From Bacteroidales bacterium (GTDB lineage: Bacteria > Bacteroidota > Bacteroidia > Bacteroidales > UBA1402): DNA of 20,719 nt. The notes beneath the pieces were generated by a model that was not told the origin of the DNA, did not search any database, and saw only the letters and a list, made by a program, of their open reading frames with translations. Positions within the stretch are counted from its first letter, which is position 1. Every line of letters starts with the position of its first letter. Location: contig DOBD01000324.1 in assembly GCA_003506275.1 (NCBI GenBank), positions 4,286 to 25,004 on the forward strand. The letters are read 5' to 3'. The position numbers and the translations under genes are program-made. Positions 909 through 20,719 of the stretch are shown here, piece after piece.

Positions 909-917
909 AAAATGAGT

Positions 918-1349: not shown

Positions 1350-1404
1350 GTCGCTGCCTTTTTTAGTATTTTTGTCCACCGGGGACGGCGGTAACACCGG
1401 GCTG

Positions 1405-1445: not shown

Positions 1446-1472
1446 AACGCTGCAAAGGTACGATTATTTTTC
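1443..1472 (+). promoter_or_regulatory. Weak candidate xerD promoter
   Basis: TATTTTTC (1465-1472) matches seven of eight informative or free positions of TAnnTTTG, and TTT (1443-1445) lies 19 bases upstream. It would give a leader of about 7 bases before the xerD ATG. It overlaps the aroQ -7 element on the opposite strand, so the two promoters could not easily be occupied together. The match is imperfect and the call is tentative. Confidence 0.3.
1453..1460 (-). promoter_or_regulatory. aroQ promoter, -7 element
   Basis: Read on the minus strand the bases are TACCTTTG followed by CAG, an exact match to the Bacteroides -7 consensus TAnnTTTG. No clean TTTG lies 19 bases upstream; TTTA sits at about 21. 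The predicted transcript would start near 1447 and have a leader of about 100 bases. Confidence 0.6.
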
Positions 1473-1484
1473 AACATCCGTTAA

Positions 1485-2387: not shown

Positions 2388-2395
2388 GTCTTCTT

Positions 2396-2414
2396 AGGGA
2401 TGCCATCCTTTTTT
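2396..2414. terminator. Palindrome with T-run between xerD and pbp1A
   Basis: GGATGCCATCC (2398-2408) is a near-perfect 11-base palindrome followed by six T. With G2397 and A2396 it can form a stem of 4 to 6 pairs with a 3-base loop, in the 26-base gap between the convergent xerD and pbp1A stops. The last T is the first base of the pbp1A stop triplet. As a terminator it would serve xerD. The same 11-mer occurs three more times upstream of pbp1A (4881-4931). Confidence 0.5.
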
Positions 2415-4828: not shown

Positions 4829-4847
4829 GGTCATGACATTCTGAGAG

Positions 4848-4855
4848 CAAAAGTA
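4848..4855 (-). promoter_or_regulatory. pbp1A promoter, -7 element
   Basis: On the minus strand the bases read TACTTTTG followed by C, an exact TAnnTTTG match 19 bases before the preferred ATG, giving a leader of roughly 13 bases. No good -33 element lies at the expected distance; the palindrome array begins about 25 bases upstream of this box. Confidence 0.55.
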
Positions 4856-4880
4856 CCTTATTTTATGACGGAATGGAAAA

Positions 4881-4936
4881 GGATGGCATCCTTTTTTAAG
4901 GGATGCCATCCTTTCCTATGGGATGCCATCCTTTTT
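4881..4936. repeat. Three palindromic repeats with a 20-base period
   Basis: Copies of GGATGsCATCC start at 4881, 4901 and 4921, exactly 20 bases apart, each followed by a T-run or T-rich stretch. The 11-mer is its own reverse complement apart from the central base. The first copy, with flanks, makes an 8-pair stem (AAAAGGAT / ATCCTTTT) with a 3-base loop. The array lies between the divergent pbp1A and lipoprotein genes. Possible roles are bidirectional terminator-like hairpins or, given a spacing near two helical turns, binding sites for a dimeric protein. The fourth copy at 2398 lies at the other end of pbp1A. Confidence 0.8.
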
Positions 4937-4979
4937 CATAAAAAAATGGGTTTCAAGATGGAAAAACAATAAAGTGTTG

Positions 4980-4987
4980 TACGTTTA
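4980..4987 (+). promoter_or_regulatory. Candidate promoter for the lipoprotein gene
   Basis: TACGTTTA differs from TAnnTTTG only at the last base. There is no convincing -33 TTTG at 19 bases upstream. A start near 4993 would leave a leader of about 25 bases before the ATG at 5018. It is the best candidate in the gap, but is weak. Confidence 0.35.
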
Positions 4988-5017
4988 CAGCAAGTATTCA
5001 CACATAAACCCCTTGTT

Positions 5018-5221
5018 ATGATCAAAAAACGCTTGCTTTTACTGGCCGTTGCAGCCATGTTTTTGACTGCTTGCGGCAACAAGGCCACCGATCAAGGTCT
5101 TTCCTATGAAGATTCCGTGGCGATTAATGATTCGCTGGAGGCTACGGCTGATCAGTTGATGGAAGAAATGGATGTCGCTGCATCCGATGTGGAAAATTTG
5201 GTCAATGAAATCAACAAGTAA
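5018..5221 (+). CDS. Small lipoprotein of unknown function
   Basis: A 67-residue product with a clear type II signal peptide: positively charged MIKKR, hydrophobic LLLLAVAAMF, and lipobox LTAC with Cys19 as the lipidated residue. After cleavage only 49 residues remain, beginning CGNKATDQ and continuing as an acidic, probably helical segment (VAINDSLEATADQLMEEMDV, then NLVNEINK). No domain was recognised. The mature part has no Asp at position +2, so export onward to the outer membrane is plausible but cannot be decided here. The stop is 4 bases before the ATG of the next gene, so both are probably co-transcribed and may act in the same compartment boundary. Real by signal peptide and spacing; function unknown. 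Confidence 0.8.
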   Translation: MIKKRLLLLAVAAMFLTACGNKATDQGLSYEDSVAINDSLEATADQLMEEMDVAASDVENLVNEINK

Positions 5222-5225
5222 GGTC

Positions 5226-5930
5226 ATGAAACAAACAACATCCTGGTTGATGGCTGGCCTCGCCGCCATCGTAATGGCCACAGCACCGGCCACCCTCTGC
5301 GCACAAGGCGCTTCTCAACAACAGACAAACAAGGCTCAGACCCCCAAACACAAAGTGGAGCGTAAACTCGACAAGGTGCAGGGTAAGCGGGACAAGGCCG
5401 CTTACGACTCATCCACCGTTGAGGGGCGTCGAGCTGAAGGTAACGTTAACAAAGAATCCCTTAAGGACGACAAGGTACAACCCAAGAAAGCTGACAAGGG
5501 AAAGCGACATGCCTATGGCAAGGACAAGGATAGCCTGCAAGGCAGGGACTTCGGGCAGGCCAGGGCTGCACAGGCTCGTCTGCAAGGCGAGAAGGCTGAT
5601 ACGTTGAGGATGAAGACAGACAAAGCCATGGAGACCGTGAAGGTGGCCAGGGAAAAAGTAGACCAAGCCAAAGCCAACCTTGAAAAAGCCAAAAAAGCAG
5701 GCAAGCTTTCCGAAACACAGTATGCGGAAAAAATGAAGAAAGTGGAGGCCGCGCAACAGGCCATTGATAAACTGGAAGCCAAAGCCAAGAAAGGTAAGAC
5801 TTTGCTCGAAGGAGCTACCGTCCAAGGAGAAATCGAAGGAGCTACCGTCCAAGGTGACGTCGAATCAGAGGCCGCCCCTGTTGAAGGAGAACAAGCAGAA
5901 CCCTTGCTGGAAATGGAGCAAACCGAGTAA
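5226..5930 (+). CDS. Secreted Lys/Glu-rich coiled-coil protein, function unknown
   Basis: A 234-residue protein starting MKQTTSWLMAGLAAIVMATA with a probable type I signal peptide, cleavage likely after LCA near residue 25. An in-frame ATG at 5172 overlaps the lipoprotein gene and would spoil the signal peptide, so 5226 is preferred. The mature protein is low in complexity: a strongly basic first half (many Lys, Arg, Gln), a heptad-like helical stretch at about residues 130-195 (VKVAREKVDQAKANLEKAKK and following), and an acidic tail. Two 9-residue repeats (EGATVQG core) lie near residues 195-212, encoded by tandem 27-base repeats. The last codons form the first unit of a 17-base tandem array. 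No family was recognised; composition resembles histone-H1-like or periplasmic spacer proteins, without evidence for either role. Confidence 0.75.
   Translation: MKQTTSWLMAGLAAIVMATAPATLCAQGASQQQTNKAQTPKHKVERKLDKVQGKRDKAAYDSSTVEGRRAEGNVNKESLKDDKVQPKKADKGKRHAYGKDKDSLQGRDFGQARAAQARLQGEKADTLRMKTDKAMETVKVAREKVDQAKANLEKAKKAGKLSETQYAEKMKKVEAAQQAIDKLEAKAKKGKTLLEGATVQGEIEGATVQGDVESEAAPVEGEQAEPLLEMEQTE
5806..5859 (+). repeat. Two in-frame 27-base direct repeats
   Basis: Units 5806-5832 and 5833-5859 share TCGAAGGAGCTACCGTCCAA and more, differing only in the last few bases. Each encodes nine residues with the core EGATVQG, so copy-number change would keep the frame. They lie in the acidic C-terminal part of the secreted protein. 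Confidence 0.9.
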
Positions 5931-6000
5931 CAGAGCAAACCGAGTAACAGAGCAAACCGACTAACGGAGCAAACCAAGTAACGAAGCAAACCGAGTAACT
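5916..6000. repeat. Five tandem copies of a 17-base repeat
   Basis: Unit consensus GAGCAAACCGAGTAACA. Units start at 5916, 5933, 5950, 5967 and 5984; the first two are identical and the others differ at one to three positions. The array begins inside the last codons of the secreted-protein gene (unit 1 supplies Glu-Gln-Thr-Glu-stop) and ends on the first base of the convergent CPBP gene's stop triplet, so it makes up the whole intergenic gap. There are no unique spacers, so it is not a CRISPR array. I see no hairpin within a unit. Confidence 0.95.
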
Positions 6001-6950
6001 CAAATCAGCGTTGCCGATTCCCTTTTTCTCCCTTGTCTGATCAATAGGGCAAGAGCCGTCAACGCCACTAATGAAAGGGGACTCAGCCACCAGGAGGCCT
6101 CCAGTCCCAGATTGTCCGGGTCTCCAGTAAGCCAGCCCTTGTTTTCTGCGAAAAGGAACAAGGCTGAGAGGGCGTTGTTGGTCATGTGGGCAGCCACAGG
6201 CACCCAAACCGAACCAGACCACCACAATAAATAGCCAAACCAGGCACCCAACAGCAGCCTGGGGAAGAATCCGAAAAATTGCAGGTGGATAGCACTGAAG
6301 ACAAAAGCCACCACCCAGATGCTGAGGTGTTTCACCCAATCAGGCGTTTGGCCCATCATGACCCGTTGCTTGCGTCCCAACAGCCTGCCCAGCCACTGTT
6401 GGAGCAAGCCACGGAAAAATAATTCCTCACCGAAGCCAGCCAGAATGGCTATGATCAAAAGGCTCCAGGTCAAATCCAGCCACGAAGTACCGGAAAGCAT
6501 TTGTTCAGTAAGAGCGGTGGCGGTCGCCTCTGACTGCCTCATCCAGGCCTCCACGCCCTCCAGACCAGCCGGCAAGTGCAGCCCCTCATTCCAGCTGACC
6601 AACACGTTGATCAGCGGTATGGCAGTCACCACGCTAAGGATGCCCAAAGCCAATGCCCGCCCGTTGGGACGCTGAAGCCCCAGGTACGACACCGGTTTTT
6701 CCTTGTTGAGTAAAGCCATAAAAAAAGGAGGCAGCACAAATAGACTGAACGATTGGATGGCCTGTGTCAACCGCAGCAATCCCGTATCCTCCAGTAAACG
6801 CCCCGACTGTTCCATCGCCTTCACCAGATCGAAGGAATAGGTGGCCAGCAACACAAAAATGGTCAATAACCAGGCCAGGAGCATTCCGCCCAGAATGACA
6901 AACAACAGGTACATCAACTGTTTGATAACCTCAAAGGGCCCCTTCATCAT
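6000..6950 (-). CDS. CPBP family intramembrane glutamic protease
   Basis: A 316-residue polytopic membrane protein with about eight hydrophobic segments. The family's three motifs are present: EEVxxR-type EELFFR (Glu175, Glu176, Arg180), FxxxH in VFSAIHLQ (Phe218, His222), and HxxxN in AAHMTNN (His255, Asn259). These residues form the catalytic centre in Rce1/CPBP proteases; bacterial members cleave unknown substrates or process signal or bacteriocin peptides, and the substrate here cannot be read from the context. The frame is open up to an ATG at 7028, but a TATCTTTG promoter box at 6962-6969 lies inside that extension, and the extra 26 residues are polar and precede the MMKGPFEVIKQLMYLLF start; ATG 6948-6950 or 6945-6947 is preferred. 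Transcribed divergently from tig and convergently with the secreted-protein gene. Confidence 0.88.
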   Translation of the reverse strand: MMKGPFEVIKQLMYLLFVILGGMLLAWLLTIFVLLATYSFDLVKAMEQSGRLLEDTGLLRLTQAIQSFSLFVLPPFFMALLNKEKPVSYLGLQRPNGRALALGILSVVTAIPLINVLVSWNEGLHLPAGLEGVEAWMRQSEATATALTEQMLSGTSWLDLTWSLLIIAILAGFGEELFFRGLLQQWLGRLLGRKQRVMMGQTPDWVKHLSIWVVAFVFSAIHLQFFGFFPRLLLGAWFGYLLWWSGSVWVPVAAHMTNNALSALFLFAENKGWLTGDPDNLGLEASWWLSPLSLVALTALALLIRQGRKRESATLI

Positions 6951-6961
6951 CGAATTTTTTA

Positions 6962-6969
6962 CAAAGATA
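6962..6969 (-). promoter_or_regulatory. CPBP protease promoter, -7 element
   Basis: The minus strand reads TATCTTTG, a full consensus match 11 bases before the preferred ATG at 6950. Initiation about 6 bases downstream would leave a leader of around five bases, nearly leaderless. No TTTG is found at 19-21 bases upstream. The box decides the start choice for the CPBP gene. Confidence 0.55.
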
Positions 6970-7031
6970 AGGTTTTGTGCCACAATCTTCGAGCCAGTTT
7001 TTTCCTGGACTGTTAAGATTGTCGGCATGGC

Positions 7032-7062
7032 TTTGTCAATTCAAAGAATAAGTGTAATTTTG
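7032..7062 (+). promoter_or_regulatory. tig promoter
   Basis: TTTG at 7032-7035, a 19-base spacer, then TAATTTTG at 7055-7062: an exact fit to the Bacteroides primary sigma-factor consensus. Transcription would begin about 7068, giving a leader of roughly 13 bases to the tig ATG at 7082. Confidence 0.85.
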
Positions 7063-7081
7063 CGGCTCAAATTTAACAACT

Positions 7082-8434
7082 ATGCAGGTAGACAAACACG
7101 TTATCGATCAGGTCAATGCTGTCATTACCATCGTATTGGACAAGGCCGATTACCAGGAAAAAGTAGAAAAGACGTTGAAAAACTACCGGAAGAAGGCCAA
7201 TGTGCCCGGCTTCCGTCCAGGCAACGTTCCGGCCGGCCTGATCAACAAACTGTACGGCAAGGCTGTTTTAGCCGAAGAAGTACAACAGTTGGTGGGTGAA
7301 TCGCTGTACAATTACATCAAGGACAATCAACTGAACATCCTGGGCGAACCCATGGCCAGCCTGGATCAGCCCGCCATCGATTTCGATACCCAGGAAAGCT
7401 TTACGTTTATGTTCGACGTGGCCCTGTCGCCCGAACTGACGTTCACGCTCAATAAAAAGGATACCATCCCTTACTACACCATCAACATCACCGAAGACAT
7501 GGTGAATGAGCAGGTGAAAAGCATGGCTTCACGCAACGGCAGCTACGTCAAGGTGGATGTCGCCGAAGAAAAAGACGTGGTCAAAGGGCAGTTGACCGAA
7601 CTCCAAGCCGATGGGCAACCAGTAGCCGAAGGCCTGGTGGTGGATGACGCCGTTCTGATGCCTGCTTATGTCAAGGAAGCCGGTGAAAAAGCCAAGTTCA
7701 TAGGATCCACCGTTGGTCAGACCGTCGTATTCAATCCTGCCCTGGCCTACGACAAAGCCGAAGCCGAATTGGCCTCCTTGCTGCGCGTGGCCAAAGATGT
7801 GGCAGTGACCATCGAGTCGGACTTCGCATTTGAGATCAAGGAAATTACCCGTTATCAGGAAGGTGAACTGAACCAGGAACTGTTTGATGCCATCTATGGC
7901 AAGGATGTGGTAACCAGTGAAGCCGACTTCCGCGAACGCGTGAAAGCCTCCATCGAAGCACAGTTTGCACCCGAAAGTGACTACCGCTTTATGGTCGATG
8001 CCAAGAACGTCCTGCTGAAGAAACTCAGTGACGTGGCCTTCCCCGTCGATACCTTGAAACGTTGGGTGTTGACCACCAAAAAAGACCAGACCGAAGCTTC
8101 CGTTGATGCCGATATGCCGGCCATGATTGAAGACCTCAAATGGCACCTCATGAAAGAGCAAATCGTGAAGGAAAACAACCTCACCGTGACCGACGCCGAA
8201 TTGTTGGAAACAGCCAAAAAAGTGACGCGGGCCCAGTTTGCCCAGTACGGCATGATGAACGTGCCTGAAGATCTTCTGACCAACTACGCCGGCGATATGC
8301 TCAAAAAGGAAGAATCCAGGCAAAACATACTGGACCAGGCCATGAGTGCCGTGGTGGCTGGTTACCTGAAGGGAGTGATCAAGCTGAACCAGAAGTCGAT
8401 CAGTGTCGAGGATTTCAACAAACTCTACGCCTGA
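7082..8434 (+). CDS. tig: Trigger factor
   Basis: Ribosome-associated chaperone that receives nascent chains at the exit tunnel. The 450-residue product begins with the ribosome-binding domain, whose signature GFRxGxxP appears as GFRPGNVP (residues 43-50) within NVPGFRPGNVPAGLINKLYG. The middle region (about 150-245) occupies the place of the FKBP-type prolyl isomerase domain but shows no clear FKBP catalytic motif, as is usual for this phylum. The C-terminal half (about 250-450) is charged and helical, as expected for the substrate-cradling arms. The start is fixed by the promoter and by MQVDKHVIDQVNAVITIVL. It has its own promoter and is followed by two terminators, so it is probably a separate unit from clpPX although adjacent, an arrangement also found in many other bacteria. 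Confidence 0.95.
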   Translation: MQVDKHVIDQVNAVITIVLDKADYQEKVEKTLKNYRKKANVPGFRPGNVPAGLINKLYGKAVLAEEVQQLVGESLYNYIKDNQLNILGEPMASLDQPAIDFDTQESFTFMFDVALSPELTFTLNKKDTIPYYTINITEDMVNEQVKSMASRNGSYVKVDVAEEKDVVKGQLTELQADGQPVAEGLVVDDAVLMPAYVKEAGEKAKFIGSTVGQTVVFNPALAYDKAEAELASLLRVAKDVAVTIESDFAFEIKEITRYQEGELNQELFDAIYGKDVVTSEADFRERVKASIEAQFAPESDYRFMVDAKNVLLKKLSDVAFPVDTLKRWVLTTKKDQTEASVDADMPAMIEDLKWHLMKEQIVKENNLTVTDAELLETAKKVTRAQFAQYGMMNVPEDLLTNYAGDMLKKEESRQNILDQAMSAVVAGYLKGVIKLNQKSISVEDFNKLYA

Positions 8435-8448
8435 TACCCAGCATTAAC

Positions 8449-8482
8449 CTGTGCTGATTCACACCAGCACAGTGCCTTTTTT
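8449..8482 (+). terminator. tig intrinsic terminator 1
   Basis: CTGTGCTG (8449-8456) pairs perfectly with CAGCACAG (8465-8472) around an 8-base loop, followed by TGCC and six T (8477-8482). It begins 15 bases after the tig stop. Confidence 0.8.
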
Positions 8483-8488
8483 AAAATA

Positions 8489-8521
8489 GGCGGTGGAATC
8501 CAATTCACCGTCTTTTTTTTT
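8489..8521 (+). terminator. tig intrinsic terminator 2
   Basis: GGCGGTG (8489-8495) pairs with CACCGTC (8506-8512), seven pairs with one G-T wobble, loop of ten bases, followed by nine T (8513-8521). It stands in tandem with terminator 1, and its T-run runs into the -33 element of the clpP promoter. Confidence 0.8.
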
Positions 8522-8551
8522 GTTTTACTCGTTTTTTTATTTATAAATTTG
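8519..8551 (+). promoter_or_regulatory. Candidate clpP promoter
   Basis: TTTG at 8519-8522 and TAAATTTG at 8544-8551 match both promoter elements, with a 21-base spacer rather than 19. Transcription would begin near 8557, about 120 bases before the clpP ATG. The -33 box is built from the end of the preceding terminator's T-run. Confidence 0.55.
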
Positions 8552-8571
8552 TTTTCCGGCTCAAAAAAGGG

Positions 8572-8621
8572 GGGTATCGGTGGAGCGATCAGTCCACAGG
8601 AACGAAATAACCCCGATAGCC
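8572..8621 (+). promoter_or_regulatory. Hairpin in the clpP leader
   Basis: GGGTATCGG (8572-8580) can pair with CCGATAGCC (8613-8621) with one mismatch, enclosing a second small stem TGGA (8581-8584) with TCCA (8593-8596). It lies in the predicted 5' leader of clpP, between promoter and gene, and is not followed by T, so it is not a terminator. Function unknown; no known riboswitch or RNA thermometer was recognised. Confidence 0.4.
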
Positions 8622-8678
8622 GACAAGTTTTCAATAGGTTAAAAGGATTAAGGTTACACGTTACACAACACGATTCGT

Positions 8679-9344
8679 ATGAAGGATTTTCGCCATTTTG
8701 CCACCGGTCACCTCAACATGAGTGGAACGGCACTGGATGATTACATGAAGATCACCAGCAATTACATCTCTCCGACCATTATCGAAGAGCGTCAACTCAA
8801 CATAGCTCAGATGGATGTGTTCTCCCGACTGATGATGGACCGCATCATCTTCCTGGGAACGCAGATTGACGACTATACCGCCAACGTGGTACAAGCCCAG
8901 TTGCTTTACCTGGATTCAGCCGATCCAGGCAAAGACATCTCCCTCTACCTGAACTCCCCCGGTGGGGGCGTTTACGCCGGTTTGGGCATTTATGACACCA
9001 TGCAGTTTATTTCGAGCCCCGTCTCCACCATCTGCACGGGTATGGCTGCCTCCATGGCCGCTGTCCTGCTCGTGGCCGGCAACAAGGACAAACGTTTCGC
9101 CCTGCAACATTCCAGGGTGATGATCCATCAGCCCATGGGGGGCGCCCAAGGGCAGGCTTCTGACATCGAAATCACTGCCCGCGAGATTCAAAAACTCAAG
9201 AAGGAACTCTACCAAATCATTGCCGACCATTCCGGAAAGTCCATGGAAGAAATAGAGCGAGACGCCGACAGGGATTATTGGATGACAGCCGCTGAGGCCA
9301 AAGCATACGGCATGATTGATGACGTAATGAGTCGTAGCAAGTAA
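8679..9344 (+). CDS. clpP: ATP-dependent Clp protease proteolytic subunit
   Basis: Serine protease that forms a double heptamer and degrades substrates unfolded by ClpX or other Clp ATPases. The 221-residue product carries the catalytic triad Ser125 (CTGMAASMAAV), His150 (RVMIHQPMGG) and Asp199 (RDADRDYWM), with Ser-His and His-Asp spacings of 25 and 49, as in the E. coli mature enzyme. LYLNSPGGGVYAGLGIYDTM is the conserved strand-glycine motif. The first 25 or so residues before the conserved core may include a removable propeptide; whether processing occurs here cannot be seen. ATG 8679 gives the usual family length. One base separates its stop from the clpX ATG, so the two are an operon. 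Transcription probably begins at the promoter with a structured leader upstream. Confidence 0.97.
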   Translation: MKDFRHFATGHLNMSGTALDDYMKITSNYISPTIIEERQLNIAQMDVFSRLMMDRIIFLGTQIDDYTANVVQAQLLYLDSADPGKDISLYLNSPGGGVYAGLGIYDTMQFISSPVSTICTGMAASMAAVLLVAGNKDKRFALQHSRVMIHQPMGGAQGQASDIEITAREIQKLKKELYQIIADHSGKSMEEIERDADRDYWMTAAEAKAYGMIDDVMSRSK

Positions 9345-9345
9345 G

Positions 9346-10587
9346 ATGGCAAAAACAGTAGATAAGTGCAGCTTTTGCGGCCGTGACAGGGATCAGGTCG
9401 ACCTGCTGATTTCCGGTACAACGGGCAACATCTGCAATGATTGCGTGGAGCGAGCCTATGAAATGGTGTCCGACATCCAGAACAAAAAGAAGCAGCCTGG
9501 GAAGAAAGCATTCGACGTGGACAGGAAAAAACTGCCCAAACCCAGGGAAATCAAAGCATTTTTAGACCAGTATGTCATTGGTCAGGATGAGGCCAAGAAA
9601 TATCTTTCCGTATCGGTATACAATCACTACAAGCGCCTGCTGCAAAAAGATGCCGGCGATGAGGTGGAAATTGAAAAGTCCAACATCCTCATGGTTGGCT
9701 CTACCGGAACAGGAAAGACGTTGCTGGCCAGGACCATTGCCCGTAAATTGCACGTGCCTTTCACGATCGTTGATGCCACCGTGTTGACCGAGGCCGGTTA
9801 CGTGGGCGAAGACATTGAGAGCATCCTGACCCGCCTCCTGCAAGTCGCCGATTACGATGTGCCTTCAGCCGAGCGGGGCATCGTCTTTATCGACGAAATG
9901 GACAAGATCGCCCGCAAAGGTGACAACCCCTCCATTACCAGGGATGTCAGCGGTGAAGGAGTACAACAAGGACTGCTCAAGTTGCTGGAAGGCTCCGTGG
10001 TTAATGTGCCGCCTCAAGGTGGACGCAAGCATCCCGACCAGAAGATGATACCGGTGGACACGAAAAATATCCTGTTCATCTGCGGTGGAGCCTTCGAGGG
10101 TATTGAAAAGAAAATCGCATCCAGGCTGAACACCAAGGTTGTGGGGTATGGTGCATCGAAAGAAACGGAACATATTGACCGTACCAACTTTTTGCAGTAT
10201 ATTGCTCCTCAGGACCTCAGGTCGTTTGGGCTGATACCGGAAATCATCGGTCGACTGCCCATACTAACCTACCTGAACCCCTTGGACAGGGAAGCCTTGC
10301 GCCAGATATTGACGGAGCCCAAAAACTCCATCATCAAACAGTATGTGAAACTGTTTGCCATGGACGAGGTGGAACTGACCTTTGAACCGGCTGTTTATGA
10401 ATACATCGTAGACAAGGCGATTGAGTTCAAGTTGGGTGCAAGGGGACTGAGAGCCATCTCGGAAACCATCATCATGGATGCCATGTACGATGCCCCTTCC
10501 GGAGACCAGAAACACTTGACCATCACCCTGGATTACGCCAGGCAGAAAGTAGAGGCATATAGCCACGCCAGGTTGAAAAGCGCTTGA
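9346..10587 (+). CDS. clpX: Clp protease ATP-binding subunit ClpX
   Basis: AAA+ unfoldase that recognises substrates, unfolds them and feeds them to ClpP. The 413-residue product has the N-terminal zinc-binding domain (Cys8, Cys11, Cys30, Cys33), Walker A GSTGTGKT (118-125), pore loop GYVGED (151-156), Walker B IVFIDE (179-184), RKH loop (227-229) and the sensor-2 motif GARGLR (364-369). The tripeptide that docks into ClpP, IGF in E. coli, appears to be VGY here (266-268), with a loop of similar position. Coupled to clpP with one intervening base. The next gene, recQ, begins 58 bases later with no obvious promoter or terminator in the gap, so read-through is likely. High-GC codon style as in the genes to the left. 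Confidence 0.97.
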
Positions 10588-10645
10588 AAGAAACGTTGCA
10601 TAGGAACCATACGACCGTCACTACGTTAACTGAAGCCACGCTAGC

Positions 10646-12826
10646 ATGAAAGAGCAGGAGGTATTGATGAAAAGCCTGAAGACCCACTTCGGATTCGATG
10701 CATTCAAGGGGAATCAGGAAGCCATCATCCGGAACGTCTTGTCCGGCAATGATACCTTTGTGCTCATGCCGACAGGGGGTGGCAAGTCGTTGTGTTATCA
10801 GCTGCCTTCCCTGCTCCTGCCAGGCACGTCGGTCGTCATTTCCCCCTTGATCGCCTTGATGAAAAACCAGGTGGACGCCATGCGTAACTTCAGCGAAGAG
10901 GACGGAGTGGCTCACTTCATCAATTCTTCGTTGAACAAAGCCGCTATCGACCAGGTCAAGGCAGACATCCTTTCAGGCAAGACCAAGCTGCTGTATGTGG
11001 CGCCCGAATCGTTGACCAAGGATGAGAACATCTTGTTTCTGAAAAACATTCCCATTTCCCTCTTTGCCGTGGATGAAGCCCATTGCATCTCGGAGTGGGG
11101 CCACGATTTCAGACCTGAATACAGGCGCATCCGTCCTTTGATCAACGAAATCGGCCGGGCACCCATTATTGCGTTGACGGCCACGGCCACCCCCAAGGTG
11201 CAGCACGATATCCAGAAAAATCTGGGTATGGTCGATGCCACCGTGTTTAAGTCGTCTTTCAACAGACCGAATCTATATTATGAGATTCGCCAGAAAGACA
11301 ATAGTATTGATAAAGAAATTATCAAATATATCAAAGCCAACGAAGGAAAATCCGGAATTGTCTATTGCTTGAGTCGCAAGAAAGTAGAAGAGTTTGCGGA
11401 TATCCTGCGGGCAAACGGGATTAAAGCCTTGTCATACCATGCCGGTATGGATTCGGTTGCCAGATCGGCCAATCAGGATGCTTTTCTGATGGAAGAGGCC
11501 GATGTAATCGTGGCTACCATTGCCTTTGGTATGGGAATCGACAAGCCCGATGTCCGTTATGTCATTCACTATGATATTCCTAAAAGCCTGGAAGGATACT
11601 ACCAGGAAACCGGTCGTGCCGGCCGGGATGGCGGAGAAGGTCAATGTATTGCCTTTTATGCCTACAAGGACTTGCAGAAATTGGAGAAGTTTATGCAGGG
11701 AAAACCCGTTGCAGAGCAAGAAATAGGTCGGCAACTGCTCTTGGAGACAGCCGCTTATGCCGAAACGGCTTTGTGTCGGAGAAAAGTGCTATTGCATTAC
11801 TTTGGTGAAGAGTATTTGGAAGAGAATTGTGGAAGTTGTGATAATTGTTTGAACCCTAAAAAACAAGTGGAAGCAAAAGAATTATTAAGTGCGGTGCTGG
11901 AAGTGGTCAGCACGCTGAAGGAGAAATTTAAAGCTGAATATGTAGTCAATATCCTTTTAGGTAATGAATCCGCCGAAATACAGTCGTATAAACACAATGA
12001 ACTGGAGATTTTCGGATCCGGTCAGGATGAAGACGAGAAAACGTGGAACGCAGTCATCAGACAGGCCCTTATTGCCGGCTATCTGGAAAAGGATATTGAA
12101 AACTACGGATTGTTGAAGATTAGTAAAAAAGGTAAAGACTTCATGACGAAGCCCGTTTCCTTTAAAATAACTAAGGATAACGAGTTTGAAGAGGAGGAAG
12201 AGGAAACTCCTGTTAGAGGAGGGGGCACGAGTGCCGTCGACCCGGTCTTGTATTCGATGATGAAGGATTTGCGGAAGAAATTGTCTAAAAGACTTGATGT
12301 ACCTCCGTTTGTGATTTTTCAGGATGTTTCCTTAGAGGCTATGGCAACGACCTATCCGATTACCTTGGAAGAATTGCAGAATATCCCCGGTGTGGGGGCT
12401 GGTAAGGCCAAACGTTATGGTCAGGAATTCGTGACGTTGATCAAGAAACACGTGGAAGAAAACGAAATCGAACGCCCCGAAGATTTGCGGGTCCGTACCG
12501 TCGCCAACAAGTCGAAACTAAAGGTCTGGATCGTACAAAGTATTGACCGGAAAGTGGCGCTCGACGATATTGCCATGACGAAAGGTCTGGAGTTTAACGA
12601 ACTGCTGGATGAAGTGGAAGCGATTGTCTATTCCGGGACACGCATCAATATTGATTACTTCCTGAATGATGTGATGGACGAGGATCATATTCAGGATATC
12701 TATGAGTATTTTAAAGATTCTGAAACGGACGACCTGGAAGATGCGATAGAGGAACTAGGTGGTGATTACACCGAAGAGGAAATCCGCTTGGTCCGAATTA
12801 AATTCTTATCTGAAATGGCGAACTAA
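10646..12826 (+). CDS. recQ: ATP-dependent DNA helicase RecQ
   Basis: A 3'-to-5' DNA helicase for recombination and replication-fork repair. The 726-residue protein is longer than the roughly 610 of E. coli. Helicase motifs: Walker A MPTGGGKSLCYQ (Lys47), DEAH (143-146) in VDEAHCISEWGHDFRPEY, TATATP, and the motif V-VI region ATIAFGMGIDKPDVRYVIHY with YYQETGRAGRDG. The RQC zinc site has Cys377, Cys395, Cys398 and Cys401. An HRDC domain occupies about 532-605 (LQNIPGVGAGKAKRYG), followed by a roughly 120-residue acidic tail common in this phylum. ATG 10646 is used; ATG 10667 (Met8) is preceded five bases away by AGGAGG, rare here, and may be the true start. Codon style changes from GC-rich to AT-rich near codon 208 (about 11,265-11,290) with the frame intact. 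Confidence 0.96.
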   Translation: MKEQEVLMKSLKTHFGFDAFKGNQEAIIRNVLSGNDTFVLMPTGGGKSLCYQLPSLLLPGTSVVISPLIALMKNQVDAMRNFSEEDGVAHFINSSLNKAAIDQVKADILSGKTKLLYVAPESLTKDENILFLKNIPISLFAVDEAHCISEWGHDFRPEYRRIRPLINEIGRAPIIALTATATPKVQHDIQKNLGMVDATVFKSSFNRPNLYYEIRQKDNSIDKEIIKYIKANEGKSGIVYCLSRKKVEEFADILRANGIKALSYHAGMDSVARSANQDAFLMEEADVIVATIAFGMGIDKPDVRYVIHYDIPKSLEGYYQETGRAGRDGGEGQCIAFYAYKDLQKLEKFMQGKPVAEQEIGRQLLLETAAYAETALCRRKVLLHYFGEEYLEENCGSCDNCLNPKKQVEAKELLSAVLEVVSTLKEKFKAEYVVNILLGNESAEIQSYKHNELEIFGSGQDEDEKTWNAVIRQALIAGYLEKDIENYGLLKISKKGKDFMTKPVSFKITKDNEFEEEEEETPVRGGGTSAVDPVLYSMMKDLRKKLSKRLDVPPFVIFQDVSLEAMATTYPITLEELQNIPGVGAGKAKRYGQEFVTLIKKHVEENEIERPEDLRVRTVANKSKLKVWIVQSIDRKVALDDIAMTKGLEFNELLDEVEAIVYSGTRINIDYFLNDVMDEDHIQDIYEYFKDSETDDLEDAIEELGGDYTEEEIRLVRIKFLSEMAN

Positions 12827-12922
12827 GGATGATAAAAAACGCTAAAAATGAAGACAGATATACTTTTTAGGGTGATGTTCCGTTTTATGTTTTTAAGTGT
12901 TTTATATAAAGTAGTATCAGAT

Positions 12923-14512
12923 ATGAATAAGTATTTCCGGATGAAAACTTGGTGCTTGGGGTGTTTGTTTGCGTTGCCGGTACTCGGTGAAGCTCAAACG
13001 TTGTCCGATTCGGTGATTATGACTGTAGCGGGTAAAGAGATTTCTCTGGCTGAGTTTGAATATATGGCTGCTAAGAATAAAGAGGTTGATTTGACAAACG
13101 AGGAGTCGCTGAATGCTTATGTAGATTTGTTCAAGAAATATAAGATGAAGGTGGCCGAGGCCGAAGAGTTGGGGCTGGATAAAACGGCCGACTTTACCCA
13201 AGAATTTGCCAAATACAAGGGGGAACTGACGGCTAGTTATTTGTCTGATGAAAAAGGTCAGGAGGCCGTTGTCAGAGATATCTATGACCGAGGAGATTAT
13301 GCGCTCGAATTAAGTTATATTCTTTTTCGTTTTCCGGGACGGGTGGTGTCTAAAGATACCGTTTCGATTTATCAAGATGCTTATAAGGCTTATGAACGTC
13401 TCCGTCAAGGTGAGGATTTTGAGGCAGTAGCCCAATCTCTGAAGCAGGATGACGCTGCTTCAAATGCTATATATGCCGAGACTGTCCATTCGCTGTTCCC
13501 ATTGAAAGCCGCAAAAGCATTCGACAACGTGGCCTTCAATCTGAAAGAAGGTGAAGTTTCCGCACCGGTGCGGACGGCTTCCGGTTATTATGTCATCAAA
13601 CTCAATAAACGGAAACCTAATTTGGGCATGGTGAAAGTCGCCCATATCTTGTTTAAAGTCGACAAGGAACACCCGGAACAGGAGACGGAGATCCGGGAAA
13701 AAGCGGAGCAAATCCGGACCCGAATTTTGGATGGTGAAGATTTTCAGACCTTGGTTCAAACGTATTCGGATGATACGAGTACGAAAGAAAAGGGAGGTGT
13801 CTTGCCGTATTTCATGATGGGCAGTTTTATCGCGCCGTTTGAGGATGCAGCCTTTGCCATGAAAGATACCGGAGAAGTGTCCGGCTTGGTGCAAACCAAA
13901 TTCGGTTTTCATATTATCAAGTTGTTAGATAAGAAACCGCGTCCGTCTTTTGATGAGGTGAAAGATGGTGTTGCTTCTGTCCTGAAAAGGGGGGAATGGA
14001 ATTTTGAGTATTATCATGCTTTTGACTCCTATTTGAAAGACGCTTATCAGTATCGGCTCTATCCGGAAGCTTATGCTGCTATACAACGGGCTTGTGATGT
14101 CTACTTCCCTACAGATTCCATGTTCTTTAAAGAAGTCGAGACGTTGGATAATCCGTTGCTCGAGGTGGATGGACAGGTGCTGTCTCAAAAAGACTTTCTG
14201 ACTTATTTGTTACATAATCCGTTTTCTACGAAGACTTATTCCGGCGATTTTATGCAGGAAGTTTATGAGCTCTATGTCCGGGATATTCTTACCGCTTTAG
14301 AACAGCAGAACCTAGAAAAGAAACATCCGGAATATCCCCTTTTACTTCAAGAATATCACGATGGTATCTTATTGTTCGAAATCAGCAATTCCAAGGTTTG
14401 GGAGCATCCTCTGGCGGAACAACCGGAATTGGAAAAACGCTGGATAGAGGAACTGGAGAAGAAATACCCGGTAACCGTGAATACTAAATTATTGAAAAAG
14501 ATTAAGAAATAG
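12923..14512 (+). CDS. Periplasmic peptidyl-prolyl isomerase with two parvulin domains
   Basis: SurA/PpiD-type chaperone likely to assist outer-membrane protein folding. With ATG 12923 the product has 529 residues and begins MNKYFRMKTWCLGCLFALPV, a signal peptide with cleavage probably after GEA. The frame extends to ATG 12848, but those 25 residues would bury the signal peptide. A SurA-like N-terminal helical domain (about 26-120, with VAGKEISLAEFEYMAAKNKE) precedes a degenerate parvulin domain (about 126-228, LELSYILFRFPGRVV) and a better conserved one (about 236-336, MVKVAHILFKV then KEKGGVLPYFMMG and GFHIIKLLDKK). The C-terminal about 190 residues contain a second NPLLEVDGQVLSQKDF segment like a SurA N-terminal strand and helix. 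It begins a same-strand run of six closely spaced genes; the next starts 11 bases after its stop. No convincing promoter was found in the 96-base gap after recQ. Confidence 0.88.
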   Translation: MNKYFRMKTWCLGCLFALPVLGEAQTLSDSVIMTVAGKEISLAEFEYMAAKNKEVDLTNEESLNAYVDLFKKYKMKVAEAEELGLDKTADFTQEFAKYKGELTASYLSDEKGQEAVVRDIYDRGDYALELSYILFRFPGRVVSKDTVSIYQDAYKAYERLRQGEDFEAVAQSLKQDDAASNAIYAETVHSLFPLKAAKAFDNVAFNLKEGEVSAPVRTASGYYVIKLNKRKPNLGMVKVAHILFKVDKEHPEQETEIREKAEQIRTRILDGEDFQTLVQTYSDDTSTKEKGGVLPYFMMGSFIAPFEDAAFAMKDTGEVSGLVQTKFGFHIIKLLDKKPRPSFDEVKDGVASVLKRGEWNFEYYHAFDSYLKDAYQYRLYPEAYAAIQRACDVYFPTDSMFFKEVETLDNPLLEVDGQVLSQKDFLTYLLHNPFSTKTYSGDFMQEVYELYVRDILTALEQQNLEKKHPEYPLLLQEYHDGILLFEISNSKVWEHPLAEQPELEKRWIEELEKKYPVTVNTKLLKKIKK

Positions 14513-14523
14513 TAAGAAACCCG

Positions 14524-15387
14524 ATGAAGATTTGCATTCTTTTCATAGCATTTGTATTTTTGTTGGGTGCATGTAAAAATACACATGCGACGGAAGGGGA
14601 TGTTCTGGCCGAGGTAAAGGGGAAAGTGCTTCGAGAATCGGAGATTAATGGCTTGATCCCTACAGGCATTTCTTCTAAAGATAGTCTCTTGTTCGCAGAG
14701 AATTATACTCGGAAATGGGTGAAAGACGAGTTGATATATGAAGTGGCCCGTGAGAATTTGGGCGATGATGCCGCAGAGATTAATCAATTGGTAGATGCTT
14801 ATCGGAGGTCATTGATCCGTCATCGTTATCTGGAACGGTTGTTGACTGAAAAACTCTCCTCGAATATTCGTGAAAGCGATAAGCTGACTTTCTTTGAAGA
14901 GAACCAGGAACTTTTTACGCTTGATGATGCCATCGTGAAAGGACTGTTTCTAAAAATCCCCATTGATGCACCGGCGTTGGATGATGTGAAGAAATGGTAT
15001 AAGTCGAATGCGGTTGAATCTTTGGAGAAAATTGAAAAATATAGCATTCAGAATGCGAGTGTTTATGAATATTTTTACGATCATTGGGTCGATTTTGGTG
15101 AAGTTATTGCCAATATCCCAATGAAAGTAACCAATGCAAATGCTTTTTTGCGGGCGAACAGGCAAGTGGAAGTCTCCGATAGCTCCTATTGCTACTTGTT
15201 GAATATTCAGGAATATATGCCGGCAGGTAAGGTGGCCCCTTATGATTTTGCCGAACCGCGGATTTTGGAGATGTTGATTAACCAGAAGCGAAAAGCCTTT
15301 CTGGAAAGTTTCGAAAATGAATTATACACCGATGCTGTAAAACGGGGGGATGTGAAGTTTTTTACAGACCGCCATGAGCATAACTAA
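14524..15387 (+). CDS. SurA-N-like lipoprotein without a parvulin domain
   Basis: A 287-residue lipoprotein: signal MKICILFIAFVFLLGAC with lipobox LGAC and lipidated Cys17. After a short linker, VLAEVKGKVLRESEINGLIP resembles the first strand and helix of SurA/PpiD N-terminal domains, and a long helical stretch follows (about 55-140: RKWVKDELIYEVARENLG, RRSLIRHRYLERLLTEKL). The parvulin signature seen in both neighbours (HILF, GGELGF-like, GYHIIQL) is absent, so this protein probably binds rather than isomerises clients. It lies between two double-parvulin genes, 11 bases after one and 10 before the other. The position and the N-terminal likeness support a co-chaperone role in outer-membrane biogenesis; this is an inference. 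AT-rich codon style matches its neighbours. Confidence 0.82.
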   Translation: MKICILFIAFVFLLGACKNTHATEGDVLAEVKGKVLRESEINGLIPTGISSKDSLLFAENYTRKWVKDELIYEVARENLGDDAAEINQLVDAYRRSLIRHRYLERLLTEKLSSNIRESDKLTFFEENQELFTLDDAIVKGLFLKIPIDAPALDDVKKWYKSNAVESLEKIEKYSIQNASVYEYFYDHWVDFGEVIANIPMKVTNANAFLRANRQVEVSDSSYCYLLNIQEYMPAGKVAPYDFAEPRILEMLINQKRKAFLESFENELYTDAVKRGDVKFFTDRHEHN

Positions 15388-15397
15388 TAGAAAAGAA

Positions 15398-16759
15398 ATG
15401 AAAAAGATTTTGATTTTGTTCTTTATGGCATGTTGCTCGCACGTGCTGATGGCGCAGGATAATGTGATCGATGAAATTGTGTGGGTGGTAGGTGATGATG
15501 CTATCTTGAAATCAGATATCGAAAAGCAACGGTTGGAAATGCAGTATGATGGACAACGTATTGAAGGTGATCCGTACTGTGTCATACCGGAAAGAATAGC
15601 GATTCAGAAACTTTATTTGAATCAAGCGAAGATAGACAGTATCGAGGTGAATGAGGCGCAGGTTATTCAGGAAGTGGACCGTTGGGTCAATTATGCGATT
15701 AACCAGATTGGTTCCAAAGAAAAGTTGGAGGAGTATTTCAATATGAAGATTTCTCAAATCAAGGAGGAGCGGAAAGAAACGATTCGCGAGCAACAGATCA
15801 TTCAGCAAATGCAACGCCAGCTGATTGGCGAGATTAAGTTGACGCCTGCCGATGTCCGTAAATACTATAATCAATTGCCGAAAGATAGTTTGCCGATGAT
15901 TCCTACGACTGTTGAGGTGCAAATTATTACGATCGAACCGAAGATCTCTTTTGAGGAGACCGATGCAATCAAAGCACGATTGAGGGATTTTACGGAACAA
16001 ATCACCAAAGGCGAAAAGGAGTTTTCTACACTGGCACGCTTGTATTCTGAAGATCCCGAATCTGCGAAACGGGGCGGTGAACTTGGTTTTTTGAGTAAGA
16101 CTTCCTTGCTCCCTGAATTTGCCAATGTCGCCTTTAACTTGTCCGACCCGAAAAAAGTGTCCAGCATTGTTGAAACGGAATATGGATACCATATTATCCA
16201 ATTGATTGAGAAACGTGGTGATCGTATTAATTGCCGTCACATTTTGTTGAGACCGAAAGTTTCTGAAAGTGAGCTGGTGGATGCAACGGTGAAAATGGAT
16301 TCGCTTTATGCGGATTTGAAAAGTGATAAGTTTACTTTTGAAGAGGCGGCGACCTTTGTCTCTTATGATAAAGATACGCGAAATAACAAAGGGCTGATGG
16401 TGAACTCCAATTATGAGAGTAATAATCAAGGAACACCTCGGTTCGAAATGCAAGAACTCCCACAGGAAATAGGTAAGGTGGTTTATAATATGCAAGTAGG
16501 CGAAATATCCAAGCCTTTCCGAATGATTACGAGTAAGCAAAAAGAGGTAGTCGCTATCGTCAAATTGAAGGATAGAACGGAAAGTCATCTTGCCAATTTA
16601 GCGGACGACTATCAGGCTTTGAAGGGGCTTGTGGAAGCAAAGAAAAGAGAAGAATTACTGAATCAGTGGATTGCGAAAAAACAAAAAACAACTTATGTGC
16701 GTGTGAGCGATGGTTGGCGCAACTGCGATTTCCAATTCCCTGGCTGGGTGAAAGAATGA
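15398..16759 (+). CDS. surA: SurA-like periplasmic chaperone with two parvulin domains
   Basis: Periplasmic chaperone and peptidyl-prolyl isomerase for outer-membrane proteins. With ATG 15398 the product has 453 residues and starts MKKILILFFMACCSHVLMAQ, a signal peptide cleaved probably after LMA. An ATG at 15374 overlaps the previous gene and adds eight polar residues; 15398 is preferred. The order is that of SurA: N-terminal domain (about 22-160, DEIVWVVGDDAILKSDIEKQ and PERIAIQKLYLNQAK), parvulin 1 (about 170-273, EVQIITIEPK, SAKRGGELGFLSK, YGYHIIQLIEK), parvulin 2 (about 277-392, NCRHILLRPKVSE, then a divergent stretch ending VVAIVKLKDRTE), and a C-terminal helix and strand (LLNQWIAKKQKTTYVRV). 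It is the closest to classical SurA of the three chaperone-like proteins. Its TGA overlaps the next ATG (ATGA), suggesting translational coupling to the OstA-like gene. Confidence 0.9.
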   Translation: MKKILILFFMACCSHVLMAQDNVIDEIVWVVGDDAILKSDIEKQRLEMQYDGQRIEGDPYCVIPERIAIQKLYLNQAKIDSIEVNEAQVIQEVDRWVNYAINQIGSKEKLEEYFNMKISQIKEERKETIREQQIIQQMQRQLIGEIKLTPADVRKYYNQLPKDSLPMIPTTVEVQIITIEPKISFEETDAIKARLRDFTEQITKGEKEFSTLARLYSEDPESAKRGGELGFLSKTSLLPEFANVAFNLSDPKKVSSIVETEYGYHIIQLIEKRGDRINCRHILLRPKVSESELVDATVKMDSLYADLKSDKFTFEEAATFVSYDKDTRNNKGLMVNSNYESNNQGTPRFEMQELPQEIGKVVYNMQVGEISKPFRMITSKQKEVVAIVKLKDRTESHLANLADDYQALKGLVEAKKREELLNQWIAKKQKTTYVRVSDGWRNCDFQFPGWVKE

Positions 16760-18336
16760 AGATCCGTCGTTGGCTATTGCTGTCTCTTGTCTTGTTGTTT
16801 TTTTCTGTACTGAAAGCACAACAACAGCAAGATACGATACCTCCTAAAGTAACGTCTGTTTTTTTAGAGCATTCCGATTTGTTGTCATACGATAAGGCAA
16901 TCAATGTGGATGCTCAAATTCTGCGTGGAAATGTTTGCTTCCGACACGACAGTTCGTTTATGTATTGCGATAGTGCGTATTATTATGAGTCGTTGAATTC
17001 CTTGGAAGCCTTCAGTAATGTGCGCATGGAGCAGGGGGACACCCTTTTTGTCTATGGCGATTATCTTATCTATGAGGGGAATATCCAATTGGCCCGCCTA
17101 AGGAATAATGTCCGGATGGTTAATAATCAGGTGACTTTGTATACGGATAGCTTGAACTATGATCGGATTGCGAATGTCGGGTATTATTTTAATGGTGGTA
17201 AAATAGTAGACGAGGACAATGTGCTATCTTCCTTTTTGGGTCAGTACTCGCCGGACACGAAAATGGCTGTTTTTAATGATAGTGTTAAATTGGAAAATCC
17301 ACAATTTACCTTGTATTCGGATACATTGGAATATAGTACGGTCTCTAAGGTGGCGACGATTTTAGGCCCTTCTGTCATCGTTTCTGATAGTGGAACGGTG
17401 TATACTTCGCGCGGTTGGTATGACACGGCAAACGACCAGTCTTTGTTGTTGGATCGTTCACAAGTGGTATCGGGTAACCGCATTCTGATTGGCGATTCAA
17501 TCGCATATAATAAGCAGGATGGTTTTGGGGAGGCTTTTGGAAATATGTGTCTGCGTGATACAGCTCAAAAGGTGATTCTGGAAGGTCAATACGGTTATTA
17601 CAACGAACGAACGGAGTATGCTTTTGCTACTGATAGTGCGCGTTTTATTGAGTATTCGGGCATTGATACCCTGTTTCTGCATGCGGATACCTTGGAGATG
17701 ATAGCCGTTGATTCTGTATCTCGAGAGATTAAAGCGTTTTATGGGGTACGGTTCTATCGTACCGATTTGCAAGGGGTATGCGACTCTTTGCAGTTTAATA
17801 CGCGCGATTCGGTATTGTATATGTTCCGTGATCCGATATTGTGGAATGAGAATTACCAGATTTTGGGCGATACGATTCTAGTCTTCATGAATGACAGTAC
17901 GGTCGATTATGCGCATGTCAAAGAGTATGCTTTTGCTTCTCAATTTATTGACTCTACCTATTTTAATCAATTAAAAGGAAGTGATCTGAAAGCTTTTTTT
18001 CAGGGGAAGGAAGTGCGAAAGATTGATGTGGCCGGTAATGCTGAACTTATCTTCTATCCCATAGAAAAAGATGGGACCATGGTGGCTCTGAATGAGGCGA
18101 AAGGTGGCTTCTTGAGTATTGAACTTAAAGAGAATAGCTTGGACCGATTGGTTATTTGGCCGACTCCGGTGGGTAGCTTGACACCAATTCCTGACTTGAC
18201 GCCTGATAAAAAGTTTTTAAAGGATTTTAAGTGGTACGATTATCTACGGCCTAAGGATAAAAATGATATATTTACCAAACAAATGAGAAAAACACAGACC
18301 GAGACACCTAGAAGGAGTAATAAGTTTGTGCACTAA
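16756..18336 (+). CDS. OstA/LptA-like periplasmic protein
   Basis: A 526-residue secreted protein with signal MKIRRWLLLSLVLLFFSVLK, cleavage probably before QQQQ. The mature protein is a run of repeated beta-strand motifs of the LptA/OstA type: HSDLLSYDKAINVDAQILRG, DSAYYYESLNSLEAFSNVRM, then ALNY/SLNYDRIAN-like and ADTLEMIAVD segments, each pairing a 'D-S-x-x-Y' strand with a 'G-x-V' strand. In LptA and the N-terminal part of LptD this jellyroll carries LPS across the periplasm. The C-terminal outer-membrane barrel of LptD is missing; the protein ends in a proline- and lysine-rich tail (WYDYLRPKDKNDIFTKQM). ATG 16756 is chosen over ATG 16666, which lies inside the upstream gene. Coupled by ATGA to the surA-like gene. 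Fold assignment is confident, its place in LPS transport is inferred. Confidence 0.85.
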   Translation: MKIRRWLLLSLVLLFFSVLKAQQQQDTIPPKVTSVFLEHSDLLSYDKAINVDAQILRGNVCFRHDSSFMYCDSAYYYESLNSLEAFSNVRMEQGDTLFVYGDYLIYEGNIQLARLRNNVRMVNNQVTLYTDSLNYDRIANVGYYFNGGKIVDEDNVLSSFLGQYSPDTKMAVFNDSVKLENPQFTLYSDTLEYSTVSKVATILGPSVIVSDSGTVYTSRGWYDTANDQSLLLDRSQVVSGNRILIGDSIAYNKQDGFGEAFGNMCLRDTAQKVILEGQYGYYNERTEYAFATDSARFIEYSGIDTLFLHADTLEMIAVDSVSREIKAFYGVRFYRTDLQGVCDSLQFNTRDSVLYMFRDPILWNENYQILGDTILVFMNDSTVDYAHVKEYAFASQFIDSTYFNQLKGSDLKAFFQGKEVRKIDVAGNAELIFYPIEKDGTMVALNEAKGGFLSIELKENSLDRLVIWPTPVGSLTPIPDLTPDKKFLKDFKWYDYLRPKDKNDIFTKQMRKTQTETPRRSNKFVH

Positions 18337-18366
18337 AGTGTTGATTCTAATTAATTAATAAAGAGT

Positions 18367-18669
18367 ATGGCCGGATTTTCATTCTTCAAATCGCGTAAAC
18401 CTCGTAAATTTGAACATAAACCGATATATTGGAATGTCCAAAAAGAAAAAGCTGAAGAGCGTGAAAAACGAGTGCGTAGAGAATTGGGAATGGATGACTT
18501 GTCAGATTACAAACCCGATATTAAAGGCTCTTTTGTGGAGGGAACAACCCACCTGAAGAAAAGTTTGGAAAAAGGAGATACACCGCAGACTAGAAAGGAA
18601 AAAAATGCTCGCCTGCTGGTGATTCTCCTGATTGTTATGTTATTGGGTTGGTTTTTGTTTGTAAGATGA
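18367..18669 (+). CDS. Small tail-anchored membrane protein, function unknown
   Basis: A 100-residue protein with no signal peptide. The first 40 residues are very basic (FFKSRKPRKFEHKPIYWNVQ, then EKAEEREKRVRRELG), the middle is charged, and the last 19 residues are a hydrophobic segment (LLVILLIVMLLGWFLFVR) ending in Arg, consistent with a C-terminal membrane anchor and a cytosolic body. The pattern of Lys/Arg-Phe followed by a Tyr/Trp motif and a C-terminal anchor recalls a small protein found beside mutL in other Bacteroidetes that is sometimes labelled 'riboflavin synthase subunit beta', a name I would not adopt. It starts 30 bases after the OstA-like gene, and its TGA overlaps the mutL ATG, so its translation is probably coupled to mutL. 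Real by spacing and composition; no function can be given. Confidence 0.8.
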   Translation: MAGFSFFKSRKPRKFEHKPIYWNVQKEKAEEREKRVRRELGMDDLSDYKPDIKGSFVEGTTHLKKSLEKGDTPQTRKEKNARLLVILLIVMLLGWFLFVR

Positions 18670-20504: not shown

Positions 20505-20519
20505 TACGTGTTCTTTTTT
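20488..20519 (+). terminator. Possible weak terminator after mutL
   Basis: AAAAAAGA (20488-20495, inside the last codons) can pair with TCTTTTTT (20512-20519) with a 16-base loop. The stem is A-T only apart from one pair, so it would be weak. It is the only hairpin with a T-run near the mutL stop. Confidence 0.25.
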
Positions 20520-20586
20520 TATGGGTGCTTAGTTAAATAATCTAAACATAGGTTATAATCTTCATTAAAAAGTAAATCTATTTAGT

Positions 20587-20594
20587 TAACTTTG
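20587..20594 (+). promoter_or_regulatory. Upstream promoter-like box for a gene beyond the window
   Basis: TAACTTTG matches TAnnTTTG. The sequence 19 bases upstream is TTA (20565-20567), a poor -33. It may be the upstream of two promoters reading right. Confidence 0.4.
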
Positions 20595-20637
20595 TCCCGC
20601 TTTAAGCTAAAAAAGAAAGTGTTAGGGGTGTAAGGTG

Positions 20638-20667
20638 TTGATTATATGTAAATAATCACTATCTTTG
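20638..20667 (+). promoter_or_regulatory. Promoter for a gene beyond the right edge
   Basis: TTG (20638-20640), a 19-base spacer, then TATCTTTG (20660-20667) followed by CAG: an exact fit to the Bacteroides promoter consensus. Transcription would begin about 20673. The remaining 46 bases are A-rich with no ATG-initiated reading frame of note, so they are probably the leader of the next gene. The 20505-20719 stretch holds nothing else I can support. Confidence 0.75.
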
Positions 20668-20719
20668 CAGCCTGATTGAAATATTTATAGATAATTAAAA
20701 AGAAACATTCTAAAGTAAA

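What the first reader, a model, noticed from the sequence alone, without database searches (positions are those of the whole stretch)
11221..11340. Abrupt change of base composition and codon style inside recQ
Left of about 11,265 the genes are GC-richer with many C/G-ending codons and frequent AGG arginine. Right of it codons turn AT-rich. Hand counts of G+C per 60 bases: 31 at 10681-10740, 33 at 11161-11220, 17 at 11281-11340, 20 at 11821-11880, 18 at 12841-12900. Values rise again in places (30 at 11401-11460), so the change is sharp but not absolute. The frame is unbroken and the switch falls right after the conserved FKSSFNRPNLYYE motif. It could be a homologous-recombination junction between two Bacteroidales, or a chimeric join in an assembly at a conserved stretch. 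If real, the whole right-hand operon including surA, ostA-like and mutL may have a different ancestry from tig-clpPX.
Basis: partly seen in the sequence, partly recalled or inferred. Interest (0 to 1): 0.75.

Follow-up and report, generated by a model that had tools for sequence, protein, structure and literature searches.

The report
Chimeric contig joined inside recQ
The sudden change in DNA composition is real, but the stretch is most likely an assembly join of two different Bacteroidales bacteria at a part of a helicase gene that they share, not a natural feature of one genome.

Summary
The composition step is real: third positions inside recQ break best at 11264 (GC3 0.72 left, 0.49 right), and 0 of 80 relatives have such a step. 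It marks the seam of a two-parent mosaic. The window's RecQ has no difference from P0121 (a Bacteroidales lineage without a family name here) over residues 1-195, and none from P0004 (Massilibacteroides-like, Tannerellaceae) over 175-726. Trees of the two parts put the window in different families, and forcing it the other way is rejected (p 3e-4 and 3e-5). A close relative of the left parent (G405) has its own recQ end, surA and mutL; Massilibacteroides has its own tig-clpP-clpX-recQ start. The hybrid protein is known from one contig. Best explanation: a metagenome assembly chimera. The reads that would settle it are not held. Natural inter-family recombination is not excluded but unlikely.

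The parts
1..11167 (.). Segment of the left parent: a Bacteroidales lineage close to genome G405 (pyk, aroQ, xerC, pbp1A-like, unknown gene, CPBP/Rce1-like, tig, clpP, clpX, recQ codons 1-174); GC about 0.505
   Evidence: Protein identity to G405: pyk 97, aroQ 89, xerC 87, pbp1A 91, unknown 67, CPBP 72, tig 91, clpP 99, clpX 95, recQ 1-155 96 %; RecQ 1-195 without a difference from P0121
11168..11230 (+). Seam: recQ codons 175-195, where the two parents have the same amino acids; the switch of parent lies somewhere in here
   Evidence: Informative sites: last left-parent site residue 174, first right-parent site residue 196 (coordinates)
11231..20719 (+). Segment of the right parent: Massilibacteroides-like (Tannerellaceae): recQ codons 196-726, three genes in the place of the surA-like PPIases, OstA-like, small ORF, mutL; GC about 0.42
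   Evidence: RecQ 175-726 without a difference from P0004; identities to G435/G436/G437: recQ second part 92-94, surA1 58-60, surA2 70-71, surA3 83-85, ostA 77-80, small ORF 58-72 %, mutL 69-72 %
10646..12826 (+). recQ, open over 726 codons, a two-parent mosaic
   Evidence: 169 discriminating sites: 35 left then 134 right, no exception
7082..8434 (+). tig (trigger factor), left parent
   Evidence: Pfam PF05697; 91 % to G405, 69 and 68 % to G360 and G296
18663..20504 (+). mutL, right parent
   Evidence: 72, 69, 69 % to G437, G435, G436; 55, 54 and 46 % in the best stretch to G405, G360, G296

Best explanation
The window is part of a chimeric metagenome contig. Two Bacteroidales of different families carry the same gene order here (tig-clpP-clpX-recQ-surA-like-ostA-like-mutL). 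Their recQ genes share a conserved stretch that encodes ALTATATPKVQHDIQKNLGM. An assembler took a short exact match in that stretch for continuity and left one genome for the other, so the first 11.2 kb are from one organism and the last 9.5 kb from another. Shown: two ancestries, a single switch within 63 bases, unmixed parental RecQs. Inferred: that the window comes from a metagenome and that the join was made by an assembler (or library) and not by a cell.
For: Composition and codon step at one main point. 0 of 80 relatives have a recQ GC3 step of 0.23 or more (largest 0.137), and G405 is flat at 0.58 on both sides of residue 196. RecQ mosaic: 169 sites, 35 P0121 then 134 P0004; no difference from P0121 in 1-195, none from P0004 in 175-726. 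Of 232 relatives compared, 0 are 93 % or more identical to both parts. Trees place residues 1-174 with P0121 and 196-726 with P0004, while P0121 and P0004 themselves keep to one family each in both trees; forcing the window to the other side is rejected (p-AU 0.00034 and 0.000033, exact parents left out). G405's RecQ is 98 % identical to the window in 115-174, but 75 % in 196-726, where it is 95 % identical to P0121; its surA3 and mutL are 55 %. The family lists of the two sides do not overlap. The hybrid protein is listed from 1 contig; P0004 and P0005 from 4 each; P0121 and P0122 (same letters from residue 8) from 1 each. Assemblies do break in this gene: G405 contigs end inside recQ and overlap exactly by 125 bases as fetched (2 bases short of the contig end), and by 127 at the tig end. 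Inter-family recQ pairs have longest exact runs of 14-41 bases; in 9 of 30 pairs one of the four longest touches 11168-11230. A review says that k-mers shared between species can lead to chimeric contigs (PMC7299287, passages read).
Against: No reads, coverage or assembler are available, so the artefact itself is not shown. The parents' own DNA could not be fetched, so the exact shared match at the seam is not measured; the differing residues 174 and 196 limit it to about 65 bases. The seam is not the single longest inter-family match in recQ, and 9 of 30 is only about twice what chance would give by a rough estimate (my arithmetic). One of 44 relatives (L015) has an upstream-downstream GC3 difference of 0.22, although its upstream side rests on clpX alone. 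The uniform ancestry of each side beyond recQ rests on relatives, not on exact parents.
Confidence: 0.94

Rival explanations
1. A natural homologous recombination: a cell of one lineage took in at least 9.5 kb (or 11 kb) from a bacterium of another family, with the exchange point in recQ.
For: The gene order is the same in both families, the frame is kept, and the exchange point lies in a stretch of identical protein; homologous recombination and an assembler would both prefer such a place.
Against: The window's recQ DNA left of the seam (10946-11167) differs by 26-32 % from seven Tannerellaceae-side loci. A published fit, log(r)=r0-18x (PMC1764933, passages read), would make such an exchange 10^4.5 or more times rarer than between identical strains if the logarithm is base 10, which the passage does not state. 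The protein is identical to both parents over its two parts, so the event would have to be very recent. No other sequence with the junction appears among the 120 best listed of 7997 hits in each, or among the 120 best listed of 4473 short proteins (highest identity listed 85 %, over 73 % of the query).
Confidence: 0.04
2. A native change of composition within one genome (expression, replication strand, or a low-GC operon).
For: The GC skew also shifts at the point.
Against: 0 of 80 relatives show a comparable step in recQ; the protein mosaic and conflicting trees cannot come from composition.
Confidence: 0.005
3. A chimera made before assembly, in the library or by amplification, rather than by the assembler.
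For: It gives the same sequence pattern; not separable with the data held.
Against: A single chimeric molecule seldom dominates a contig of this length (general knowledge, not tested).
Confidence: 0.015

Closest known systems
Interspecies chimeric contig of metagenome assembly (e.g. review PMC7299287, passages read)
   Same: Two genomes joined once at a short conserved stretch, with both parental proteins present unjoined in databases
   Different: Reads and graph are not available here, so the cause is inferred from sequence alone; the passages speak of related species, here the parents are of different families
Natural mosaic genes from homologous recombination between bacteria
   Same: Sharp in-frame switch of ancestry inside a housekeeping gene
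   Different: Known cases are mostly between close relatives (recalled); here the parents are of different families and both parts are identical to unrecombined parental proteins

Membership tests
Interspecies chimeric contig | The two sides have different, separately attested parents | tested here: met
   P0121 left, P0004 right; trees and AU tests
Interspecies chimeric contig | A single switch located in a stretch conserved between the parents | tested here: met
   One switch in 169 sites, within codons 175-195 where the parents' proteins are identical
Interspecies chimeric contig | Exact shared DNA of at least k bases at the seam | not testable with these tools
   DNA of the exact parents could not be fetched; in 9 of 30 other inter-family pairs a run of 17-23 exact bases touches the seam
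Interspecies chimeric contig | No reads or pairs span the seam, or coverage changes there | not testable with these tools
   No reads held
Interspecies chimeric contig | Junction absent from independent sequences | tested here: met
   Among listed hits only P0003, the window's own protein, on 1 contig, carries it; 0 of the 120 short fragments listed match it in full
Natural recombinant | Junction seen in more than one independent genome or sample | tested here: not met
   (listed hits); G405 and Massilibacteroides genomes carry native arrangements

The most novel reading that the evidence does not exclude
A living Bacteroidales cell replaced at least 9.5 kb of its recQ-to-mutL region with DNA from another family by a very recent homologous exchange within about 63 bases of conserved recQ, leaving a working hybrid helicase and a foreign mutL.
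Probability: 0.04. Interest if true: 0.6.

Novelty: not a real feature. Interest (0 to 1): 0.08.

Why it matters
As an artefact it matters for hygiene: the hybrid RecQ would look like a real protein, and gene neighbourhood or transfer claims drawn from this contig would be wrong. It also shows that a composition step seen by eye can place an assembly seam to within about 100 bases. If it were natural it would be a very wide homologous exchange.

Tried and rejected
Native heterogeneity was rejected by the comparison with 80 relatives and by the trees. A third lineage or further seams were looked for: the next largest composition difference is 0.032 against 0.080, and per-gene identities point to one lineage on each side. 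Rfam gave no match in the window. The first AU test did not answer, because the window is identical to a parent in each part and such rows are merged; it was repeated without P0121/P0122 (left) and P0004/P0005 (right). The fragment search for an independent junction listed none. The first paper search with four terms found nothing; one search gave the review whose passages were read, and the modelling paper whose passages were read; the other papers were seen as listings only, as was a search for Massilibacteroides (not used).

Rows dropped: of 239 proteins, 6 outside 600-800 aa were left out (P0001 and P0002 among them), and the window's own P0003 was the reference, leaving 232. These are the best 120 listed of 7997 in each of two searches. 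Gene names other than those with Pfam hits (pyk, clpP, clpX, recQ, mutL and the small ORF were not in that call) rest on recall of the sequences and, for recQ, on the names. The reading of source 'lgn' as Logan is recalled.

Full report
G+C falls from 0.505 (1-11200) to 0.422 (11231-20719). Between adjacent 3-kb stretches the largest difference is 0.080 (at 11790); at centres more than 3.5 kb away it is 0.032, in the opposite direction. Inside recQ (10646-12826) the best change point of third-position letters is 11264, with a log-likelihood gain of 18.1 against a largest value of 12.7 in 500 permutations. GC3 is 0.72 for the first 206 codons and 0.49 for the rest. AGG makes up 41 of 156 arginine codons on the left and 6 of 143 on the right. 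GC skew rises at the same place.

It is not a property of this locus in general. Of 80 relatives kept by a search with the whole RecQ, 0 have a GC3 drop of 0.23 or more at this point; the mean is 0.025 and the largest 0.137. Upstream against downstream genes could be compared in 44 of the 80, with mean difference -0.003. One (L015, 0.22, with only clpX upstream) is as large as the window's own.

The two sides have different kin. In the same 80 loci the right side is Parabacteroides-like (recQ second part up to 90 %), while the left side is about equally far from many lineages (trigger factor at most 52 %). A search of 393 genomes of the order with trigger factor gave 69 and 68 % in G360 and G296 as the best, and the family of G360 (13 genomes) held G405 with 91 %. 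For the right side, the surA-like gene at 12917-14512 was sought in 123 genomes of the family of G003 (a Parabacteroides locus lies in it) and was best in G435, G436 and G437 (61, 60, 58 %). The two family lists share no genome, so the parents are of different families in that grouping.

Both parental lineages have the gene order in native form. G405, the close relative on the left, matches pyk through recQ codon 155 at 67-99 %. Another of its contigs holds recQ from residue 115 on, and its own surA3 at 55 % and mutL at 55 % in its best stretch. That RecQ is 98 % identical to the window in residues 115-174, 100 % in 175-195 and 75 % in 196-726, where it is 95 % identical to P0121. Its GC3 is 0.58 on both sides of residue 196. 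Massilibacteroides G435 and G437 have their own tig (46-47 %), clpP, clpX and recQ start (81 %), followed by recQ and downstream genes that match the window's right side (recQ 94 and 92 %, surA3 85 and 83 %). G436's contig ends within recQ, so its upstream genes were not seen.

The mosaic is exact at the protein level. Searches listed 239 proteins (the best 120 of 7997 each, one shared), of which 232 were compared with the window's. P0004 and P0005 are 100 % identical to it over residues 207-726 and 83.0 and 82.5 % over 1-206; P0121 is 98.5 % over 1-206 and 74.8 % over 207-726. Residue by residue, P0121 has no difference from the window in 1-195 and P0004 none in 175-726. P0121 and P0004 differ at 169 sites: the window has P0121's residue at the first 35 and P0004's at the next 134, without exception. 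The switch lies between residues 174 and 196, window 11168-11230. Of the 232, 0 are 93 % or more identical to both parts. The window's protein P0003 is listed from 1 contig; P0004 and P0005 from 4 contigs each; P0121 and P0122 from 1 each.

Trees agree. On residues 1-174 the window is identical to P0121 and sits with the family of G360, G296, G115 and G214; on 196-726 it is identical to P0004 and sits with Massilibacteroides. P0121 and P0004 keep to one family each in both trees (44 rows, quick method). With the exact parents left out, forcing the window into the other group costs 53 and 228 log-likelihood units (p-AU 0.00034 and 0.000033).

How it most likely arose. Two Bacteroidales families share the gene order and the helicase stretch ALTATATPKVQHDIQKNLGM, which lies in codons 175-195. 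In 30 other pairs of recQ genes from the two sides the longest exact DNA run is 14-41 bases, and in 9 of 30 one of the four longest runs touches 11168-11230, about twice a rough chance estimate. That suffices for a short k-mer join, but does not single the seam out. Assemblies do break in this gene: G405's contigs stop inside recQ and overlap exactly by 125 bases as fetched, two bases short of the contig end, and by 127 bases at the tig end, which looks like the k-mer overlap of a de Bruijn assembler (inference). Chimeric contigs from shared k-mers are a known problem (PMC7299287, passages).

Natural recombination would give the same pattern only if it were very recent (protein identical to both parents), very wide (26-32 % DNA divergence left of the seam) and rare or local enough to be missing from the listed hits. 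The published decline of recombination with divergence (PMC1764933, passages) makes it unlikely but not impossible. What is shown is the two-parent mosaic; that it was made by an assembler is an inference that reads would settle.

Noticed in passing
Proteins P0001 (908 aa) and P0002 (818 aa): Two RecQ relatives carry an exact in-frame tandem duplication of 182 and 92 residues; P0002 is listed on 2 contigs (longest 124,638 bases). Real duplications or assembly errors, not decided.
   Followed up: partly
L139, L140, L171 (genome G405): Contigs of one assembly overlap end to end by exactly 127 bases (tig end) and by 125 bases as fetched (in recQ), so the tig-clpPX-recQ region is split at what look like graph branch points.
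   Followed up: partly
window 5172-5930 (+): Unknown 252-aa, charged ORF with no Pfam match, 67 % identical in G405; the least conserved gene of the left side.
   Followed up: partly
window 12917-16759 (+): Three genes in a row where PPIC-type surA-like proteins lie; the middle one (14524-15387) has no Pfam match although it keeps its place in relatives.
   Followed up: no
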